From assembly GCF_008728635.1 (NCBI RefSeq), contig NZ_CP044285.1, positions 3,534,001 to 3,598,000 of the forward strand: DNA of 64,000 bases. Reading direction: 5' to 3'. Within the stretch, counting starts at the first letter, position 1. Every line of letters starts with the position of its first letter. A program made the translations under genes and the position numbers. The DNA comes from Hymenobacter baengnokdamensis. Its GTDB lineage: Bacteria; Bacteroidota; Bacteroidia; Cytophagales; Hymenobacteraceae. A model generated the notes under the pieces. That model did no database searches, had not been told where the DNA came from, and saw only the letters and a list, made by a program, of their open reading frames with translations. Below, in pieces: positions 791-19,709 of this stretch.

Positions 791-2242
791 ATGCGTTTTT
801 ACACTTTATTGGTGCTGCCGGCCCTGTTGGCGGGCACCCAGCCGGCGGCCGTCACTTCCACTCCTTCTACCAGCCGCCAGGTGCCGGCCGGCGCCTTCCC
901 CGAAACCTTCGAAACCGGCAGCAAAGGCGCCTACGAAACTGCGGACGTGGCGCTGAGCACCGGCCCCTGGCTGTTTACCAACGCCCTGATTGGCAGCACC
1001 GAGCAAGACCATAAGACGGGCGCCCATGCGGCCCGCCTGCGCGCCGGTGGTAAGCTGACGATGCAGTTCGACGCTCCGGCCGGCATCCGTAAAATCACCA
1101 TCCTGTCGGCCGCCTACGGCCAGGATGGCCCCAGCACCTGGGAGCTGTGGGTGAGCCGCGACCACGGCCGCACCTGGCAGCGCAACGGCCTGCCCCAGAC
1201 GGCCGTCGGCCCCACGCTGCTGGCGGCTACCTTCGCCGGCCTGGCCAACGAGCCGCTGCGGCTGGAAATCCGCAAGACCGACGCGGGCAAGAGCCGGCTC
1301 AACCTGGATGACATCAGCCTCGAAACGACCAGCGGGCCGGTGACGGCCGCCCCGGCCAGTCGCCCGGCCCCGGCTTCGCCGGCCGACGACTATTTCAAAA
1401 ACCGAAACAACCCGGCCGCGCCGGCCAACCCCACAGCGGCCCGGCCCGTACGCCAGTCCCCAATCCCCGGCACGGCCACCGACAACGACAACCTGCTGCT
1501 CGGCAACCCCAGCGGCGCCACCTCGGACCCGGCAAATACCACCAATTACCTATATATCCACCCCCAATACGTAACGGGCTATAACGCCCAGCGGGGCACG
1601 CCCATCTGGACGAGCTGGCACGTGGGGCGTACCGATATTACCAAAAACTTCCCGCGCCAGAACGACTTCCGGGCCGACCCCGGCCTGCCCCGGCAATTCT
1701 ACGCCGTATCGCCGCAGAGCTACAGCGGCTCGGGCTTCGACAAGGGTCACAATTGCCCCAGCGGCGACCGCACGGCTACGCTCGACGATAACTCGGCCAC
1801 CTTCCTGATGAGCAACATGGTGCCCCAGGCCCCGCAAAACAACCAGCAAACCTGGGCGCACTTGGAAGAATACACCCGCGCCCAGGTCGAAAACGGCCAA
1901 GAAGCCTACGTGATAATGGGCAGCTACGGCCGCGGCGGCACCGGCAAAAACGGCCCCGCCCAAACGCTCGACCAGGGCCGGGTAACCGTGCCCGCCCACA
2001 TCTGGAAAGTGGTGGTCTTCCTGCCCGAAGGCAGCAACGACATCCAACGCATCATCGCCGGCCAGGCCCGCGTGGTAGCCATCGACACGCCCAACGACAA
2101 CAGCATTGCCCCGCAGTGGAACCAGTACCTGACCTCGGTCGATGCCATTGAAGCCGCCTCGGGCCTCGATATTCTGAGCGCGCTGCCGGCCGCTACGCAG
2201 GCCCAGCTGCAAAAGGTGGTGGACAGCGGCCGGGCGCGCTAG
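791..2242 (+). CDS. Secreted DNA/RNA non-specific endonuclease (NucA/NUC1 family) with N-terminal beta-sandwich domain
   Basis: A 483-residue protein. Residues 1-20 look like a signal peptide. Residues ~30-175 resemble an extracellular MAM/choice-of-anchor beta-sandwich, followed by a Pro/Ala-rich linker and a beta-beta-alpha-metal nuclease domain from ~220. The active-site motif DKGHNCPSGDR (His320; the family usually has DRGH) is followed by Asn351 (metal ligand), Trp355, Glu359 and Arg363. Their spacing from the histidine (31, 35, 39, 43) equals that of Asn155, Trp159, Glu163 and Arg167 from His124 in Anabaena NucA, by memory of that family. The enzyme is expected to degrade extracellular DNA and RNA with Mg2+. 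A NuiA-type inhibitor domain is encoded nearby at 4893-5726. The stop overlaps the stop of the convergent hydrolase by 4 bp. Confidence 0.93.
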   Translation: MRFYTLLVLPALLAGTQPAAVTSTPSTSRQVPAGAFPETFETGSKGAYETADVALSTGPWLFTNALIGSTEQDHKTGAHAARLRAGGKLTMQFDAPAGIRKITILSAAYGQDGPSTWELWVSRDHGRTWQRNGLPQTAVGPTLLAATFAGLANEPLRLEIRKTDAGKSRLNLDDISLETTSGPVTAAPASRPAPASPADDYFKNRNNPAAPANPTAARPVRQSPIPGTATDNDNLLLGNPSGATSDPANTTNYLYIHPQYVTGYNAQRGTPIWTSWHVGRTDITKNFPRQNDFRADPGLPRQFYAVSPQSYSGSGFDKGHNCPSGDRTATLDDNSATFLMSNMVPQAPQNNQQTWAHLEEYTRAQVENGQEAYVIMGSYGRGGTGKNGPAQTLDQGRVTVPAHIWKVVVFLPEGSNDIQRIIAGQARVVAIDTPNDNSIAPQWNQYLTSVDAIEAASGLDILSALPAATQAQLQKVVDSGRAR

Positions 2243-3081
2243 CCTTTTTGAGCGGTAGGCTGGGCGGCCAGCAGGCGGCGCAACGCTTCCAGACAGCGCG
2301 GGGCTGTGTCATCTTCCACAAACGCTCCCATCGACTGCTGGTGGTCGCCGGGCACGGGCAGCACCTCGCGCCGCTGCCGGCGGCTAGCAGCCTGCGCAAC
2401 AGTCATGGTATCGGCTAGGGTCGTGGCCTTGTCGTCGGTGCCGGTGATGAACAGCCAGGGGCACTTCACCTTTGACGCTACGCGGCTGTAGGCGGCATCA
2501 GCGGGCAGAATAATGGGGCGCTCAGGGCGAATGCGCTGGTAGTAGCTCACCACGTTTTGGGGGTTAGCCGGGTAGGCCACGGTCACCAAAAAATCGCAGC
2601 GAGTGGTAGCCGCCGCTTCCGAGCCCACCAGCGAACCCATCGAGAAGCCCATAAGCCCCACGCGCTGGCCGGGGCTGCGCCGCCGGGCCTCGGTCAGGGC
2701 TGCGCGCGTGTCGGTGGCAAACTCGGGGTAATAAAGGTAATTTTGGTTGATGGTGAAGGCGTCACTGTGCCCAAAGCCACGGTAGTCGAAGAGTAGCACC
2801 CGGTAGCCGGCCCCGGCCAACGAGGCCGCCGTGTAGATATTGGAAGCCATGTTACCCATGTCGCCACCGGCCACTACTACGGTGGTGTGCTGGGTGGGTA
2901 CGCCGGCCGTGGGCTCAATCAGCCAGGCGGCCAGATGCACTTGGTCGGGCGTAGTGAGGGTTAGGTCCTGGTATTTCAAGCCCAGCGTGTCGGGTCGGGC
3001 CCAGTACTTAGCAAAAGGCTTGATAGCGAAAGCTGGCCCGGCGGCCAGCAGAGCGAGGCAAAAGAGTAAGACGCGGACCAT
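2239..3081 (-). CDS. Secreted alpha/beta hydrolase
   Basis: A 280-residue protein starting with a signal peptide (MVRVLLFCLALLAAGPAFA). The alpha/beta-hydrolase fold is shown by the oxyanion-side VVVAGGDMGN, the RVLLFDYRGFGHSD strand-turn and the nucleophile elbow GLMGFSMGS (Ser as nucleophile). ITGTDDKAT probably carries the acid, and PGDHQQSM the catalytic histidine. It resembles the serine aminopeptidase/prolyl-oligopeptidase-like hydrolases. The substrate is unknown. It lies downstream of the M28 peptidase on the same strand but is separated from it by a strong hairpin terminator at 3102-3130, so it is probably transcribed separately. Confidence 0.88.
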   Translation of the reverse strand: MVRVLLFCLALLAAGPAFAIKPFAKYWARPDTLGLKYQDLTLTTPDQVHLAAWLIEPTAGVPTQHTTVVVAGGDMGNMASNIYTAASLAGAGYRVLLFDYRGFGHSDAFTINQNYLYYPEFATDTRAALTEARRRSPGQRVGLMGFSMGSLVGSEAAATTRCDFLVTVAYPANPQNVVSYYQRIRPERPIILPADAAYSRVASKVKCPWLFITGTDDKATTLADTMTVAQAASRRQRREVLPVPGDHQQSMGAFVEDDTAPRCLEALRRLLAAQPTAQKG

Positions 3082-3101
3082 ACGACTGGAGCTAAAAAGC
3101 G

Positions 3102-3130
3102 AAAAGCCAGTGCATGATGCACTGGCTTTT
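3102..3130 (-). terminator. Rho-independent terminator after the M28 peptidase
   Basis: A perfect 14-bp palindrome (AAAAGCCAGTGCAT / its complement) with a single-base centre. Read on the minus strand it is followed by a T-rich run (CTTTTCGCTTTTT). It lies between the stop of the peptidase (3182) and the start of the hydrolase (3081). It is symmetric enough to act in both directions. Confidence 0.85.
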
Positions 3131-3181
3131 CTATAGACCTCTGCTTACCAGAAGCGTTGCATAACCTAAATGAGATAGACT

Positions 3182-4825
3182 TTACCTCCCAAACCGCGCG
3201 CCAAAAAAATCTCCCTTGTTCCAGCTTGGCCGCGCATCGGCCTGCGCCACTTGGTGGCCAATGAGGAAGTTGAGCCGGGCGTACTGCGCGCCGGCCGCCC
3301 AGTCGAAGGTGCCGCCCTCGAAGTTGTCCTGGGGCTTGTGGTAGGTCAGGGCGCGCCACTTCTGCACGGTTTCGCTGAGGTTGTTTTTGCCATCGGCCGT
3401 GCGGTTGCCGTATTTGATGTGCAGGGCTGGGATACCCTGCACCACGAAGCTGTACTGGTCGCTGCGGATAAAGCGGTTTTGCGTCGGCTCGGGGTCGGGC
3501 TCGATGGACAGCTTCAGGTAATCGGCGGCCGCCCGCACGGGCTGCATCAGCGACGAATGGTCGGCGCCCAGCGGCACCACGCTCAGCAGCGGCGCGATAA
3601 TAGTGGGCATGTCGGTATTGATGTCGGCCACCAGCGCTGATTTTGGCACCGTCGGGAATTTGGCAAAATACGTTGACCCAATCAGGCCCATCTCCTCGCC
3701 CGTTACCAGCACGAAGAGCACCGAGCGCCTGGGCTTGGTTTTGAGGCTGGCGTAGAGCTTGCTGATTTCGAGCACGCTGGCTACGCCGGTGGCATTGTCG
3801 TGCGCGCCATTGAAAATCGAGTCGCCGTTGATGGGCGCGCCTACGCCCAGGTGGTCGAGGTGGGCACTGTGCACCACGTACTCGTTCTTCAGCTTAGCAT
3901 CCGAGCCCGGGATTTTACCCACCACGTTGTAGCTGTCTACGTCCTGGTAGCGGCTGCGGTAGCGGGCGCTCAGGCGGCCGGGCAATACCAGAGAGGCCAC
4001 CTTGCCACCACGCAAAGCACTCAAGGTCTGCGCCGTGTCGTGAGCCGCGCCGGCAAATAGCTGCTGCAAGGTGGCCGGACTGATACTACCCACCAGCTGC
4101 GCCGAGCCGGGCGCGTAGCTACGCGATACGCCTACCTGGCCATCGGGCGAAAGCGCGCTCACGAGGCCTTTTGGGAACTCGGGCAGCCGGGCTTCGGCGT
4201 GGGCGGCGGCCAGCAGCACGCCCACCGCGCCGTGGCGAGCGGCCGTTTCGAGCACCGTACGCAGGTCGGTGAAGTACTGGCGCTCGTTGTCGGCAAATTG
4301 CCGGGGCATCTGACGCGTGATAACCACCACTTTGCCCTTCGCATCGAGGCCCGCGTAGTCATCATACTTCAGCTCGGGGGCCGAGATACCGTAGCCCGCA
4401 AACACCAGTGGCGCATTGGCTACGCTTACTTCGGCCTGGCCCGGATTGGGATACAGGGTCATGGCCGCACCATAGGCCAGTGGCTGTGCCGCGCCGGTGG
4501 CCGGCTGAAAGCTGAGCGTTGCGCCCGCCTCTACGAAGGCCCGGCGCAGGCGCACGGTCTGGGTGTAGCCGCCTTTATCGCCGGCCGGGAGCACGCCGTT
4601 CTGCTTAAGCTGGCTCACCACGTAGTCTACGGCCAGCTGGTAGCCGGGCGTGCCGGGCAGGCGGCCTCGCAGGCGGTCGTCGGCCAGGTAGCGCACGTGC
4701 GCTTCGAGGGCGGCGGGCTGCACGGTGGGCAGGGCCGCGATGGCAGCAGGGTCGATGCCCTGGGCAGCGGCCAGCCGGCTGGCAAGCAGGCTGGCGACCG
4801 CCAGGAGTTTAGTAGCTTGATGCAT
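3182..4825 (-). CDS. Secreted M28-family zinc metallopeptidase with PA domain
   Basis: A 547-residue aminopeptidase-like protein with an N-terminal signal peptide (MHQATKLLAVASLLASRLAA). A protease-associated (PA) insert is suggested around residues 120-230 (APLVFAGYGISAPELKYDDY...KGKVVVI). The M28 zinc-binding and catalytic motifs follow in order: HSAHLDHLGVG (first zinc His and nearby Asp), NGAHDNATGVA (bridging Asp), VTGEEMGLIGS (catalytic Glu-Glu), NTDMPT, and LHIKYGN (last zinc His). It should release amino acids from peptides outside the cytoplasm. The HIT-NuiA gene lies 67 bp upstream on the same strand. A terminator follows the gene. Confidence 0.93.
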   Translation of the reverse strand: MHQATKLLAVASLLASRLAAAQGIDPAAIAALPTVQPAALEAHVRYLADDRLRGRLPGTPGYQLAVDYVVSQLKQNGVLPAGDKGGYTQTVRLRRAFVEAGATLSFQPATGAAQPLAYGAAMTLYPNPGQAEVSVANAPLVFAGYGISAPELKYDDYAGLDAKGKVVVITRQMPRQFADNERQYFTDLRTVLETAARHGAVGVLLAAAHAEARLPEFPKGLVSALSPDGQVGVSRSYAPGSAQLVGSISPATLQQLFAGAAHDTAQTLSALRGGKVASLVLPGRLSARYRSRYQDVDSYNVVGKIPGSDAKLKNEYVVHSAHLDHLGVGAPINGDSIFNGAHDNATGVASVLEISKLYASLKTKPRRSVLFVLVTGEEMGLIGSTYFAKFPTVPKSALVADINTDMPTIIAPLLSVVPLGADHSSLMQPVRAAADYLKLSIEPDPEPTQNRFIRSDQYSFVVQGIPALHIKYGNRTADGKNNLSETVQKWRALTYHKPQDNFEGGTFDWAAGAQYARLNFLIGHQVAQADARPSWNKGDFFGARFGR

Positions 4826-4892
4826 ATCGAATTTTTTGCGGTGTTAAAGTGTCGGGTCTGGCCTTGAGCAGAAAGGCTTTTTCCCCTACCTG

Positions 4893-5726
4893 CTAGGTTT
4901 CCGTCAGCACCGTTTTGAAGCCGGCCAGGCGGCCGGCCGCATCGCGGCCCAGCGCGTAGGCGTGCACCTGCGGTCCGGAGCCGACCCGGTACACCTGCGT
5001 GCCGTCCAGTTCCTGTTTCAGGTATAGCTGCAAGGCTTTGAAGCGGTTGGCTATAGCTACATCGCCCGTCACGCCGTTGTCGGCGGTATGGTTGCGCAGA
5101 AACTCGGTTAGCTCCACTTGCTCCACTTTCGCGCCGGCTGGCTCGCCCACTACTTGCAGCAGCTTATCGACGGGCAGGTTGCCGGCCGGGGCAGCGTAGC
5201 TCACGGGCTCCAGCGGCGCATCCGATTCGCTGATGAAATTAAGGCCCTGCGTCAGCCTTTGCAGCTGAGCCAGGGTGGTATCGTCGGCGGCCGGTGCCGC
5301 CCCGGTAGCTGCCGCACCGAGTCCACTGCCGCCGTCCACCTTAGCCGCAATGGCGGCGGCCAGCGCCCGCATCCGGTCGTCGGCCACCTTTATTTTCGGG
5401 TTGGCGAAGTTCATATCCGCCACCTTGTTCAGCGGGATGAGGTGAATGTGCGCGTGCGGCACTTCCAGCCCAATCACGGCCACGCCGATGCGCTTGCAGG
5501 GCACGGCCGCCTGCACGCCCTTGGCCACGCGCTGCGCAAATACGTGCAGCGCCGCCAGCTCTTGCGGCGATAAATCGAATATATAGTCGATTTCTTTTTT
5601 CGGAATCACCAGCGTATGGCCTTCTACCAGCGGCGTGATATCAAGAAAGGCCAGGTGGTCGGCGTCTTCGGCGACCTTGTAGGCGGGCAGCTCGCCCGAA
5701 ACGATGCGGGAGAAAATAGAGGCCAT
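4893..5726 (-). CDS. HIT-family protein fused to a NuiA-type nuclease inhibitor domain
   Basis: A 277-residue two-domain protein without signal peptide. Residues 1-115 are a histidine-triad hydrolase: GHTLVIPKKEIDYIFDL and the triad HAHIHLIPL (His91, 93, 95). After an Ala/Gly linker (~125-150), residues ~150-277 match the NuiA inhibitor of Anabaena nuclease NucA: FISES (Glu167, corresponding to NuiA Glu24), VYRVG, the Ala-Gly-x-Leu-Ala-Gly stretch and a C-terminus ending in Glu-Thr (Thr277, corresponding to Thr135, which in the NucA complex reaches the active-site Mg2+). The distance from the Glu to the C-terminal Thr is 110 residues here and 111 in NuiA. The matching nuclease is encoded at 791-2242. 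The fusion would keep the inhibitor cytoplasmic. The NuiA assignment rests on recalled family sequence, not a search. Confidence 0.85.
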   Translation of the reverse strand: MASIFSRIVSGELPAYKVAEDADHLAFLDITPLVEGHTLVIPKKEIDYIFDLSPQELAALHVFAQRVAKGVQAAVPCKRIGVAVIGLEVPHAHIHLIPLNKVADMNFANPKIKVADDRMRALAAAIAAKVDGGSGLGAAATGAAPAADDTTLAQLQRLTQGLNFISESDAPLEPVSYAAPAGNLPVDKLLQVVGEPAGAKVEQVELTEFLRNHTADNGVTGDVAIANRFKALQLYLKQELDGTQVYRVGSGPQVHAYALGRDAAGRLAGFKTVLTET

Positions 5727-5730
5727 TTTT

Positions 5731-5874
5731 TAATGGTTAATGAAGCAATGGTCAATGGGTAATGACAAAGTAACTGCGCTGACCATTTCGAGAAGCAGTT
5801 CACAAAAAAAGCAGCGCCGGCGGCGCTGCTTTTTAAAGGCAATTAACCATTGACCAGTAATCAATTAACCATTA
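5731..5874. repeat. AT-rich inverted repeat flanking a terminator
   Basis: TAATGGTTAATGAAGCAATG (from 5731) and its near complement at 5842-5874 form imperfect arms around the terminator hairpin at 5806-5835. Such AT-rich arms are unlike the surrounding high-GC DNA. Confidence 0.6.
5806..5835. terminator. Strong bidirectional terminator hairpin between greA and the HIT-NuiA gene
   Basis: AAAAAGCAGCGCCG, a one-base centre, then the exact complement ending in TTTTT. The A-run and T-run on both sides make it usable on either strand. On the minus strand it would end transcripts from greA before the HIT-NuiA gene. Confidence 0.85.
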
Positions 5875-5895
5875 GACCTGTTCCTAAATCAGGAA

Positions 5896-6008
5896 AATCA
5901 AGAAAAACGTTGGTCATGCTGAGCTTGTCGAAGCATCCCTACCGAACGACACCCGACCGAAGCGGTAGAGATGCTTCGACAAGCTCAGCATGACGTTCTT
6001 TTGATTTT
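5896..6008. repeat. Intergenic inverted repeat, family B (GCTGAGCTTGTCGAAGCATC), copy 1
   Basis: Arms 5896-5943 and 5963-6008 are near-perfect complements centred on the block CATGCTGAGCTTGTCGAAGC, with A-rich and T-rich outer ends. The same element recurs at 13357-13458 and 19594-19709. It lies just after the greA stop. Confidence 0.9.
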
Positions 6009-6038
6009 TTATTTATTTAGAAAAAACTATATTAACTA

Positions 6039-6512
6039 CTAGCGCCCCACTTCCAGAATCTGAAACTGGAGCTTGCCGGCAGGCACCGTGATTTCGGCCA
6101 GGTCGCCGGCCGATTTACCCAGCAGGCCCTTGCCGATAGGCGATTTTACCGAGATTTTACCAGCTGCCAGGTTGGCCTCTTCCTCGGCTACCAGCAGGTA
6201 GTCGAGTATCATATTATTTTTAAGATTTTTCAGCTTCACTTTGCTCTGAATGAGCACCTTGCTGAAATCCATATTGGTTTCGTCCAGGATGCGGGCATTG
6301 CCCAGCACTTCTTCGAGCTTCGCTATTTTCAACTCAAGCAGGCCCTGGGCGTCTTTGGCGGCGTCGTACTCGGCGTTTTCGCTCAGGTCGCCTTTGTCGC
6401 GGGCTTCGCGCAGGTCTTCGGCGGCCTTGGCCCGGCCCCGGACTTTGAGGTCCTGGAGTTCGTCTTTCAGCTTTTGCAGGCCCTCGGCGGTGTAATAATT
6501 AATAGTAGCCAT
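6039..6512 (-). CDS. greA: Transcription elongation factor GreA
   Basis: A 157-residue GreA. It rescues backtracked RNA polymerase by stimulating cleavage of the nascent RNA. It starts MATINYYTAEGLQKLKDEL, giving the normal family length. A longer in-frame extension upstream (to 6635) is not GreA-like and was not used. The N-terminal coiled coil carries the acidic tip DLSENAEYDAAKD (residues ~40-52). The C-terminal FKBP-like domain contains the family's SPIGKGLLGKSAGD segment. It stands between repeat-rich spacers and is probably monocistronic. Confidence 0.97.
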   Translation of the reverse strand: MATINYYTAEGLQKLKDELQDLKVRGRAKAAEDLREARDKGDLSENAEYDAAKDAQGLLELKIAKLEEVLGNARILDETNMDFSKVLIQSKVKLKNLKNNMILDYLLVAEEEANLAAGKISVKSPIGKGLLGKSAGDLAEITVPAGKLQFQILEVGR

Positions 6513-6659
6513 AAGTTTAGGACTGTTTTCGCGTGGCGGGTGGGTCAGGTAAAAAAGAAAGAGAACGGCTGGCACATCGGCCAGCCGTTCTCCCCTATTG
6601 GTAACGCAAAGATAGGGCAAAAAGTGGGAAAGCAAGGCGCCTGTCCCCGCAACCCCGCG

Positions 6660-13356: not shown

Positions 13357-13458
13357 CGTCTGTCATGTCGAGCTTGCCGAAGCATCCCGCGTGCAGCACT
13401 AACCTCAATCGTTCGACGATGCGGGCGAGATGCTTCGGCAAGCTCAGCATGACAGACG
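13357..13458. repeat. Intergenic inverted repeat, family B, copy 2
   Basis: Arms 13357-13390 and 13421-13458 share GAGCTTGCCGAAGCATC with the family B elements, with a few base changes (GCCGAAGC for GTCGAAGC). It lies between pepA and pdxA. The right arm runs through an open extension upstream of pdxA that is not coding. Confidence 0.85.
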
Positions 13459-19593: not shown

Positions 19594-19709
19594 AAAAAGA
19601 AGAACGTCATGCTGAGCTTGTCGAAGCATCTCTACCGCTTCGTTGCACATGTACAAGCGGCGCGGTAGAGATGCTTCGACAAGCTCAGCATGACGTTCTT
19701 TTGATTTTT
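19594..19709. repeat. Intergenic inverted repeat, family B, copy 3
   Basis: Arms 19594-19637 and 19663-19709 are nearly perfect (core ACGTCATGCTGAGCTTGTCG). The right arm, ending TTCTTTTGATTTTT, is almost identical to the right arm of the copy at 5896-6008, so the two copies are recent relatives. It lies between accB and accC. Confidence 0.9.

What the first reader, a model, noticed from the sequence alone, without database searches (positions are those of the whole stretch)
791..5726. HIT hydrolase fused to a NuiA-type nuclease inhibitor, next to its likely NucA-type target
Seen: the protein at 4893-5726 has a full histidine triad (His91/93/95) and then a ~128-residue domain matching Anabaena NuiA, keeping the Glu (167) and C-terminal Thr (277) that contact NucA. 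The secreted nuclease at 791-2242 keeps, at identical spacing from the catalytic His, the Asn, Trp, Glu and Arg that in NucA form the active site and inhibitor contact. Known: in Anabaena the nuclease is exported and NuiA protects the cytoplasm. Inference: this is a self-protection pair in which the inhibitor is carried by a nucleotide-binding HIT domain, perhaps to sense or clean up nucleotide products. I do not know of a described HIT-NuiA fusion.
Basis: partly seen in the sequence, partly recalled or inferred. Interest (0 to 1): 0.82.

Follow-up and report, generated by a model that had tools for sequence, protein, structure and literature searches.

The report
Nuclease inhibitor fused to HIT enzyme
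In Hymenobacter bacteria the likely antidote to a neighbouring exported DNA/RNA-cutting enzyme is not a separate protein but the tail of an everyday nucleotide-handling (HIT) enzyme, and a similar join seems to have arisen independently in relatives of green sulfur bacteria.

The parts
4893..5726 (-). HIT-NuiA fusion protein, 277 aa
5349..5726 (-). HIT domain (residues 1-126); His triad 91/93/95 at 5442-5456; best PDB relatives 7mqw and 3p0t (HIT proteins; 3p0t is mycobacterial)
5283..5348 (-). variable linker (residues 127-148), Ala/Gly/Pro-rich, 18-55 aa in 41 fusions
   Evidence: residues 138-147 have pLDDT below 50
4896..5282 (-). NuiA domain (residues 149-277); Glu167 (5226-5228) = NuiA Glu24; C-terminal Thr277 (4896-4898) = NuiA Thr135
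791..2242 (+). NucA-type DNA/RNA non-specific endonuclease with an export-signal-like N-terminus, 483 aa; catalytic His320 at 1748-1750; likely target of the NuiA domain
   Evidence: Pfam Endonuclease_NS 2.5e-44; NucA 3.5e-57; active-site residues
1490..2224 (+). nuclease domain of the endonuclease (residues 234-478)
   Evidence: alignment to NucA
791..850 (+). signal-peptide-like N-terminus; most relatives have a lipobox Cys at this position 15 (LLAC[S/T]Q in the closest), this copy has Gly15
6039..6635 (-). greA, upstream neighbour of HIT; the greA-HIT pair is also found in sister genera where HIT is separate
   Evidence: Pfam GreA/GreB

Best explanation
The protein at 5726-4893 is a cytoplasmic inhibitor of the NucA-type nuclease encoded 2.7 kb away. 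Its C-terminal NuiA domain is expected to plug the nuclease active site as Anabaena NuiA does: the hydroxyl of the very last residue (Thr277) on the catalytic Mg2+, and Glu167 in place of a phosphate. This would protect the cell from nuclease that folds before export or re-enters. The N-terminal HIT domain is the organism's ordinary, still constrained greA-linked HIT enzyme, and serves as a constantly made, probably dimeric carrier. Shown here: the two domains, their folds, the conserved key residues, the conserved neighbourhood and the co-occurrence with the nuclease family. Inferred: binding, inhibition, location in the cytoplasm, dimerisation, steady expression, and the carrier role.
For: Domains and fold. 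Glu24 equivalent: E in 51 of 52 fused rows (D in one) and 37 of 38 standalone rows (the other is a partial remnant in L034). Thr135 equivalent: 46 Thr and 6 Ser of 52 fused rows, so a hydroxyl is kept in all, at the exact C-terminus in 51 of 52 (one row, L044, has three extra residues). A NucA-type nuclease lies downstream and convergent in 30 of 30 loci with >=9.5 kb on both sides (in one, L002, the gene is split), and in 38 of all 43 loci; the five misses have 0-5.8 kb of downstream sequence (loci were fetched with the fusion, not the nuclease, as query). In sister genera standalone nuiA is within 1.5 kb of nucA in 16 of 21 loci, taken from the 30 best-scoring NuiA matches, and cyanobacterial plasmids show the convergent pair (2 of 2 regions read). 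In 200 Hymenobacteraceae genomes: 192 with both, 5 NuiA only, 3 neither, 0 nuclease only, Fisher 4.3e-5; in 395 phylum genomes 23 of 23 NuiA genomes have the nuclease family against 144 of 395 overall, Fisher 2.5e-11 (neither test corrects for relatedness). NuiA is the C-terminal part in every fusion seen, as a mechanism needing a free C-terminus requires. Anabaena NuiA binds NucA with pKd 11.49 (passage of PMC5374557) and has been expressed as a safeguard against leaky NucA in a kill switch (passages of PMC4890671).
Against: No inhibition or complex was tested. NuiA's second contact pair Asp75-Trp76 is mostly Gly-Val in the fused clade, so affinity or partner may differ. Five of 197 NuiA-positive Hymenobacteraceae genomes have no member of the nuclease family; in two of them (G091, G101) NuiA is intact and 20 kb around it holds no nuclease remnant (positive control). 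In other lineages NuiA is often not next to a nuclease: 0 of 12 loci with about 6-10 kb flanks outside Hymenobacteraceae (L121-L132), 0 of 9 (L253-L261). 121 of 144 phylum genomes with the nuclease family do without NuiA. A distance-matrix correlation NuiA-nuclease (r 0.76) is no better than with other neighbouring genes (up to 0.79), so it adds nothing. Nothing shows that the carrier role, rather than catalysis, is why the HIT part is fused. A hairpin-and-T-tract lies between greA and the fusion (seen by eye), so co-transcription with greA is not assured.
Confidence: 0.72

Rival explanations
1. The HIT part is functional in the pairing: nucleotide binding or hydrolysis (nuclease products, dinucleoside polyphosphates or other adenylylated compounds) changes the inhibitor's hold on the nuclease or clears its products.
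For: HIT-NuiA fusion arose at least twice with two distant HIT subfamilies: the Hymenobacter HIT and an Ap4A-phosphorylase-like HIT (3ano/6af2-like) in genus g104, with the same two genes overlapping by 4 bp in sister genus g107 (L124) and a HIT gene 1.9 kb from nuiA in L128. The triad is invariant in the aligned Hymenobacter fusions.
Against: NuiA is also joined to chorismate synthase in one draft genome, and of the 17 standalone nuiA loci with about 6-10 kb flanks (L124-L140) only L124 and L128 have a HIT gene nearby, and none of the 8 standalone ones L254-L261. The linker is long and variable (18-55 aa), which does not favour tight coupling. Triad conservation is equally expected from housekeeping duty.
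Confidence: 0.15
2. The fusion is a passive by-product: nuiA came to lie behind greA-HIT together with nucA and read-through fixed a neutral fusion; the two halves work independently.
For: HIT and NuiA lie more than 1 Mb apart where both sit on one large contig (G012, G017, G052). In the fused clade nuiA and nucA keep a convergent order also seen in other genomes. The halves evolve at different rates (mean pairwise identity 0.87 and 0.66).
Against: Fused-length frames in all 92 genomes of the window's genus whose frames are listed, of 116, and the join was reinvented elsewhere with another HIT.
Confidence: 0.25
3. The NuiA domain has been re-purposed and no longer inhibits the neighbouring nuclease.
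For: Loss of the Asp75-Trp76 site; NuiA without any nuclease of the family in 5 of 197 genomes; no nuclease within about 10 kb in the second fused lineage.
Against: Glu24 and the C-terminal hydroxyl residue remain nearly invariant; conserved neighbourhood; none of the 200 family genomes has the nuclease family without NuiA. The Trp76 equivalent is Trp in only 15 of 38 standalone rows, and rows next to nucA lack it too, so that site is not a mark of function in this family. The second fused lineage still encodes a PF01223 nuclease elsewhere (3 of 3 genomes).
Confidence: 0.1

Closest known systems
Anabaena NucA-NuiA (PDB 2O3B), PF01223/PF07924
   Same: Nuclease with NucA active-site residues at the same spacing; inhibitor with NuiA fold, Glu24 and C-terminal Thr; convergent gene pair in two cyanobacterial plasmids read here.
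   Different: The inhibitor is the C-terminal half of a HIT enzyme; no Asp75-Trp76; KGH in place of RGH; the nuclease has an extra N-terminal domain and lies 2.7 kb away with two genes between.
Bacteroidota greA-linked HIT proteins (129-143 aa)
   Same: Same HIT subfamily (up to 62% identity among L045-L065), usually the same greA neighbour (18 of 21), same triad.
   Different: No NuiA domain in these 21 loci.
C. elegans NitFhit (1ems), a natural HIT fusion
   Same: A HIT enzyme joined to another protein in one chain; also found by fold.
   Different: Partner (a nitrilase, recalled) is not an inhibitor, and HIT is the C-terminal part there (chain residues 300-440).
Polymorphic toxin Tox-NucA with Imm36, SUKH or NTF2-type immunity (PMC3482391, passages seen)
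   Same: NucA-type nuclease next to a protein that may neutralise it.
   Different: Immunity family here is NuiA, a word absent from the held text of that paper (first 300,000 of 357,715 characters); Pfam finds no trafficking module in this nuclease.

Membership tests
NuiA (PF07924) | profile match over the whole domain | tested here: met
   6.6e-31, positions 3-130 of 130
NuiA (PF07924) | NuiA fold | tested here: met
NuiA (PF07924) | Glu24 and free C-terminal Thr135 (roles recalled from Ghosh et al. 2007, which was not readable here) | tested here: met
   Glu167 and Thr277
NuiA (PF07924) | Asp75-Trp76 second NucA contact (recalled; a feature of Anabaena NuiA, not family-wide) | tested here: not met
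   Gly-Val in the window protein; Trp in 15 of 38 standalone rows
NuiA (PF07924) | inhibits a NucA-type nuclease | not testable with these tools
   needs an assay; no complex prediction was available
HIT superfamily (PF01230) | profile match, fold and HxHxHxx triad | tested here: met
HIT superfamily (PF01230) | nucleotidyl hydrolase or transferase activity | not testable with these tools
   not measured
DNA/RNA non-specific endonuclease (PF01223), NucA type | profile match and catalytic His, Asn, Glu | tested here: met
   2.5e-44; His320, Asn342, Glu359
DNA/RNA non-specific endonuclease (PF01223), NucA type | Arg of the DRGH-type motif as in NucA (a variable position, not required by the Pfam family) | tested here: not met
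   Lys here; Lys in 28 and Arg in 9 of 37 fusion-linked nucleases
Polymorphic toxin-immunity system | toxin domain behind a known trafficking module | tested here: inconclusive
   Pfam finds none in the N-terminal half; the fold of that half was not obtained

The most novel reading that the evidence does not exclude
A nucleotide-gated antidote: the HIT domain reads a stress or damage nucleotide (for instance an adenylylated compound such as Ap4A) and thereby releases or tightens the NuiA domain, so that an exported DNA/RNA nuclease is under metabolic control from inside the cell. The same wiring was invented twice, with a Hint/HIT-type enzyme in Hymenobacter and an Ap4A-phosphorylase-type enzyme in green-sulfur relatives.
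Probability: 0.12. Interest if true: 0.85.

Novelty: new variant of a known kind. Interest (0 to 1): 0.6.

Why it matters
Bacteria that export broad DNA/RNA nucleases must keep them off their own nucleic acids. Here the antidote is welded to a housekeeping enzyme, which could prevent its loss and secure its supply. Recurrent joining of NuiA to HIT enzymes makes a long-open question, what the near-universal HIT hydrolases do in bacteria, testable through a partner with a clear read-out (nuclease inhibition).

Tried and rejected
Mirror-tree test: NuiA-nuclease distances correlate (r 0.76; partial 0.685 after HIT and GreA, 0 of 2000 permutations as high), but control genes near the locus give r up to 0.79 with NuiA and up to 0.93 with the nuclease, and the partial value falls to 0.25 with one of them (10 controls, one of which, window 1550-2212, is only an antisense frame of the nuclease). 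Rejected as evidence. One search used 35 of 43 candidates (L003-L044 and the window; L002, with its split nuclease gene, was not a candidate).

PADLOC: only a weak HIT match (ThsC, 17.8 bits) and nothing for the nuclease; a defence-system reading was not pursued. NCBIfam has no model over its cut-off for either window protein. Phage records searched with the second fusion type: 14 records, HIT-part matches only, bar one weak 24% match across both parts (H46). Plasmid records: none covers 80% or more of either query; the NuiA matches listed are cyanobacterial and separate from HIT (3 of 3 records; 40 of 89 records are listed). The terminator/promoter scan of 5700-6060 found nothing, though a GC-rich hairpin followed by T's is visible by eye at about 5830-5804 on the minus strand. 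In one search most rows cover only the HIT half. Loss of the nuclease is rarer in the fused clade (1 of 124 genomes against 7 of 76), but this is a single clade and was not used as evidence.

Rows dropped: one search left out L026 (cut by contig end), duplicate sequences, and loci that repeat others (L001, L098, L121-L140). Alignment A1 used 40 of the 43 Hymenobacter loci plus the window (without L002, L026, L040) and 10 of 21 HIT-only loci. Alignment A2 used 22 of the fusion-linked nucleases plus the window. The tree used 72 HIT sequences, a part of those on hand.
Full report

KEY RESIDUES. Aligned to 2o3b_B, Glu167 is NuiA Glu24 and Thr277 is NuiA Thr135. From recall (Ghosh et al. 2007; the paper could not be read here), in the crystal the Thr135 hydroxyl coordinates the nuclease's Mg2+, Glu24 enters the active site, and Asp75-Trp76 form a second contact. 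Among 52 fused rows of the Hymenobacter kind the Glu24 column is Glu in 51 and Asp in one, and the Thr135 column is Thr in 46 and Ser in 6; it is the exact C-terminus in 51 of 52 (L044 has three more residues). Of 38 standalone rows 37 have both; the other is a partial remnant in L034. All three rows of the second fusion kind have both. A Thr-to-Ser-only change at the last residue is what a hydroxyl-to-metal contact predicts. Asp75-Trp76 is not kept in the fused clade (Gly in 50 of 52, Val in 48 of 52), and the Trp is kept in only 15 of 38 standalone rows, so this contact is not general.

THE NUCLEASE. Its best PDB relative is NucA (3.5e-57). The His, the Asn, both Asn of the NN pair, the Trp, the Glu and three Arg compared are conserved in all 37 fusion-linked nucleases that could be aligned, the window's included; the Arg of the RGH motif is Lys in 28 and Arg in 9 of them, and Arg in all 16 nucleases next to standalone NuiA. 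Most relatives begin with a lipoprotein-type signal: a strict lipobox pattern in 25 of 35 fusion-linked and 12 of 16 standalone-linked nucleases; the misses include several near-lipobox ends and uncertain starts. In the window the Cys is Gly15, in a column that is Cys in at least 90% of 23 aligned nucleases, so this copy may be soluble rather than anchored. The genome has a second Endonuclease_NS gene at C1:4162936-4163577, which also keeps the NucA residues and may be a second target.

CONSERVED NEIGHBOURHOOD. 43 Hymenobacter or Hymenobacteraceae loci (L002-L044) were found with the fusion as query. In all 30 loci that have at least 9.5 kb on both sides, a NucA-type nuclease lies 324-6487 bp downstream, on the other strand; in one of them (L002) the nuclease gene is split. 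Of the 13 loci with shorter flanks 8 show it; the five without (L007, L012, L020, L026, L034) hold 0-5.8 kb downstream. greA was found upstream in 42 of 43 (L007 has only 331 bp there). With two such genes here and mostly two to six per genome in the genus, chance proximity would be a few per cent per locus at most (my estimate). The search for NuiA, made without regard to nucleases, gave loci for its 30 best-scoring matches; 9 are fused and in 16 of the 21 standalone ones a nucA lies within 1.5 kb, in same-strand and convergent layouts. Of the other five, two come from genomes without any nuclease of the family (G091, G101) and three from genomes with it on another contig. Two cyanobacterial plasmids read in detail show the convergent nuiA-nucA pair. 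Outside these groups adjacency is not the rule: none of the 12 non-Hymenobacteraceae loci L121-L132 and none of the 9 loci L253-L261 has a nuclease within the 6-10 kb held on either side; L099 does.

CO-OCCURRENCE. In the same 200 Hymenobacteraceae genomes NuiA occurs in 197 and PF01223 in 192. All three genomes without NuiA (G007, G032, G063) also lack the nuclease family; five have NuiA without it (G046, G091, G101, G131, G187); none has the nuclease without NuiA (Fisher 4.3e-5). In 20 kb around NuiA in G091 and G101 no nuclease remnant is seen, while a control finds the gene in three other loci. In 395 genomes of the phylum NuiA occurs in 23 and PF01223 in 144; all 23 are among the 144 (Fisher 2.5e-11; by genus 12 of 12 against 80 of 170, 7e-5). 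These tests ignore shared ancestry, and 121 of the 144 nuclease genomes manage without NuiA, so outside this family the dependence is one-sided: NuiA implies the nuclease, not the reverse.

ORIGIN OF THE FUSION. In the 13 Hymenobacteraceae genomes with a separate greA-linked HIT that were examined (L182-L187, L190, L191, L193, L194, L196-L198), HIT directly follows greA, 13 of 13; greA lies upstream of HIT in 18 of 21 HIT-only loci from other Bacteroidota, in two of them about 1 kb away. In three genomes with standalone NuiA where both genes lie on one large contig (G012, G017, G052), HIT and NuiA are more than 1 Mb apart. So a nuiA-nucA pair probably came to lie behind greA-HIT and nuiA was joined to HIT (inference). 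In the order-level search fused-length frames (274-389 aa) are seen in 47 of 47 genomes of the window's genus and 4 of 4 of genus g5; joined, 92 of 92 listed genomes of the window's genus have frames of at least 254 aa, 24 further ones not being listed. Frame length alone does not show HIT; both domains in one frame were checked in the named loci (all but L040, whose HIT half is split, and L026, cut by the contig end). In this genome the fused HIT is the only PF01230 match. The HIT half is the more constrained (mean pairwise identity 0.87 against 0.66 for the NuiA half and 0.42 for the linker in 41 fusions), as expected of a working enzyme.

A SECOND, INDEPENDENT FUSION, AND A THIRD PARTNER. 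Genomes G323, G469 and G586 (genus g104) encode 300-351 aa proteins with a HIT domain of the Ap4A-phosphorylase type (for L104: 3ano, E 1e-40) and a C-terminal NuiA (2o3b_B, 3.5e-29). Their family has the chlorosome protein family PF02043 in 6 of 6 members tested, hence probably green-sulfur-related; 3 of 9 genomes of that family are fused. In sister genus g107 (G331, L124) the same HIT gene overlaps a separate nuiA gene by 4 bp, the likely precursor state. A HIT tree places the two fused kinds on distant branches, so the fusion arose at least twice. No nuclease lies within about 10 kb of these, but each genome has at least one PF01223 gene. One draft genome (G717) joins NuiA to chorismate synthase; a single case in a 570-contig assembly. 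In several other Cytophagales, standalone nuiA sits near what look to me like housekeeping genes (for example a ribosomal L20-like gene, named by eye).

MECHANISM. The parsimonious reading is inhibition of the neighbouring nuclease in the cytoplasm by active-site plugging, with the HIT enzyme as carrier. HIT proteins are usually homodimers (recalled), so the fusion would present two inhibitor arms on flexible linkers. That NuiA is the C-terminal partner in every fusion seen follows if the last residue must be free. Whether HIT chemistry matters is open: two independent HIT partners argue for it, a chorismate synthase partner and the loose linker argue against it. Nothing here demonstrates inhibition.

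NOVELTY. The NucA-NuiA pair is known. Searches of the held papers gave: 'NuiA' with 'nuclease' 9 papers, 'nuclease A inhibitor' 2, 'NucA' with 'NuiA' 9, 'histidine triad' with 'nuclease inhibitor' 0, 'HIT domain' with 'NuiA' 0, 'Hymenobacter' with 'HIT family' 0; none of what was seen describes a NuiA-HIT fusion, but most hits were seen as listings only and subscription papers are not held. Of the papers cited, only passages were seen (PMC5758888, PMC4890671, PMC3482391, PMC5374557). I rate it a new variant of a known kind.

Noticed in passing
window 791-850 and loci L003-L044: The nuclease's signal has Gly15 where most relatives have the lipobox Cys (LLAC[S/T]Q in the closest), so this copy may have lost its lipid anchor.
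   Followed up: partly
L002:13877-15486: In the 97%-identical relative BRD67 the nuclease gene is split into separate ORFs while HIT-NuiA is intact; pseudogene or assembly error.
   Followed up: no
window 5917-5990, 13429-13449, 19610-19690: A 21-base motif occurs five times with up to 2 mismatches, four of them as two inverted pairs (0 expected); one pair forms a long palindrome between greA and HIT-NuiA, like a dispersed repeat or REP/MITE-type element.
   Followed up: partly
L231 (G717), 1498-2997 -: Chorismate synthase with a C-terminal NuiA domain in one 499-aa frame.
   Followed up: partly
L034:12536-13072 +: A second, partial NuiA-like remnant about 1.7 kb downstream of an intact HIT-NuiA gene.
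   Followed up: no
L260, L261, L258: Standalone nuiA in other Cytophagales lies near ribosomal-protein-like genes (named by eye) with no nuclease in the 19 kb held.
   Followed up: no
window 896-1330 (nuclease residues 36-180): Conserved N-terminal domain of the nuclease without a Pfam name; the genome's second nuclease (L096) starts with a similar stretch.
   Followed up: partly
L040:10001-10896: In H. qilianensis the HIT half is split over two overlapping frames while the NuiA half stays open.
   Followed up: no
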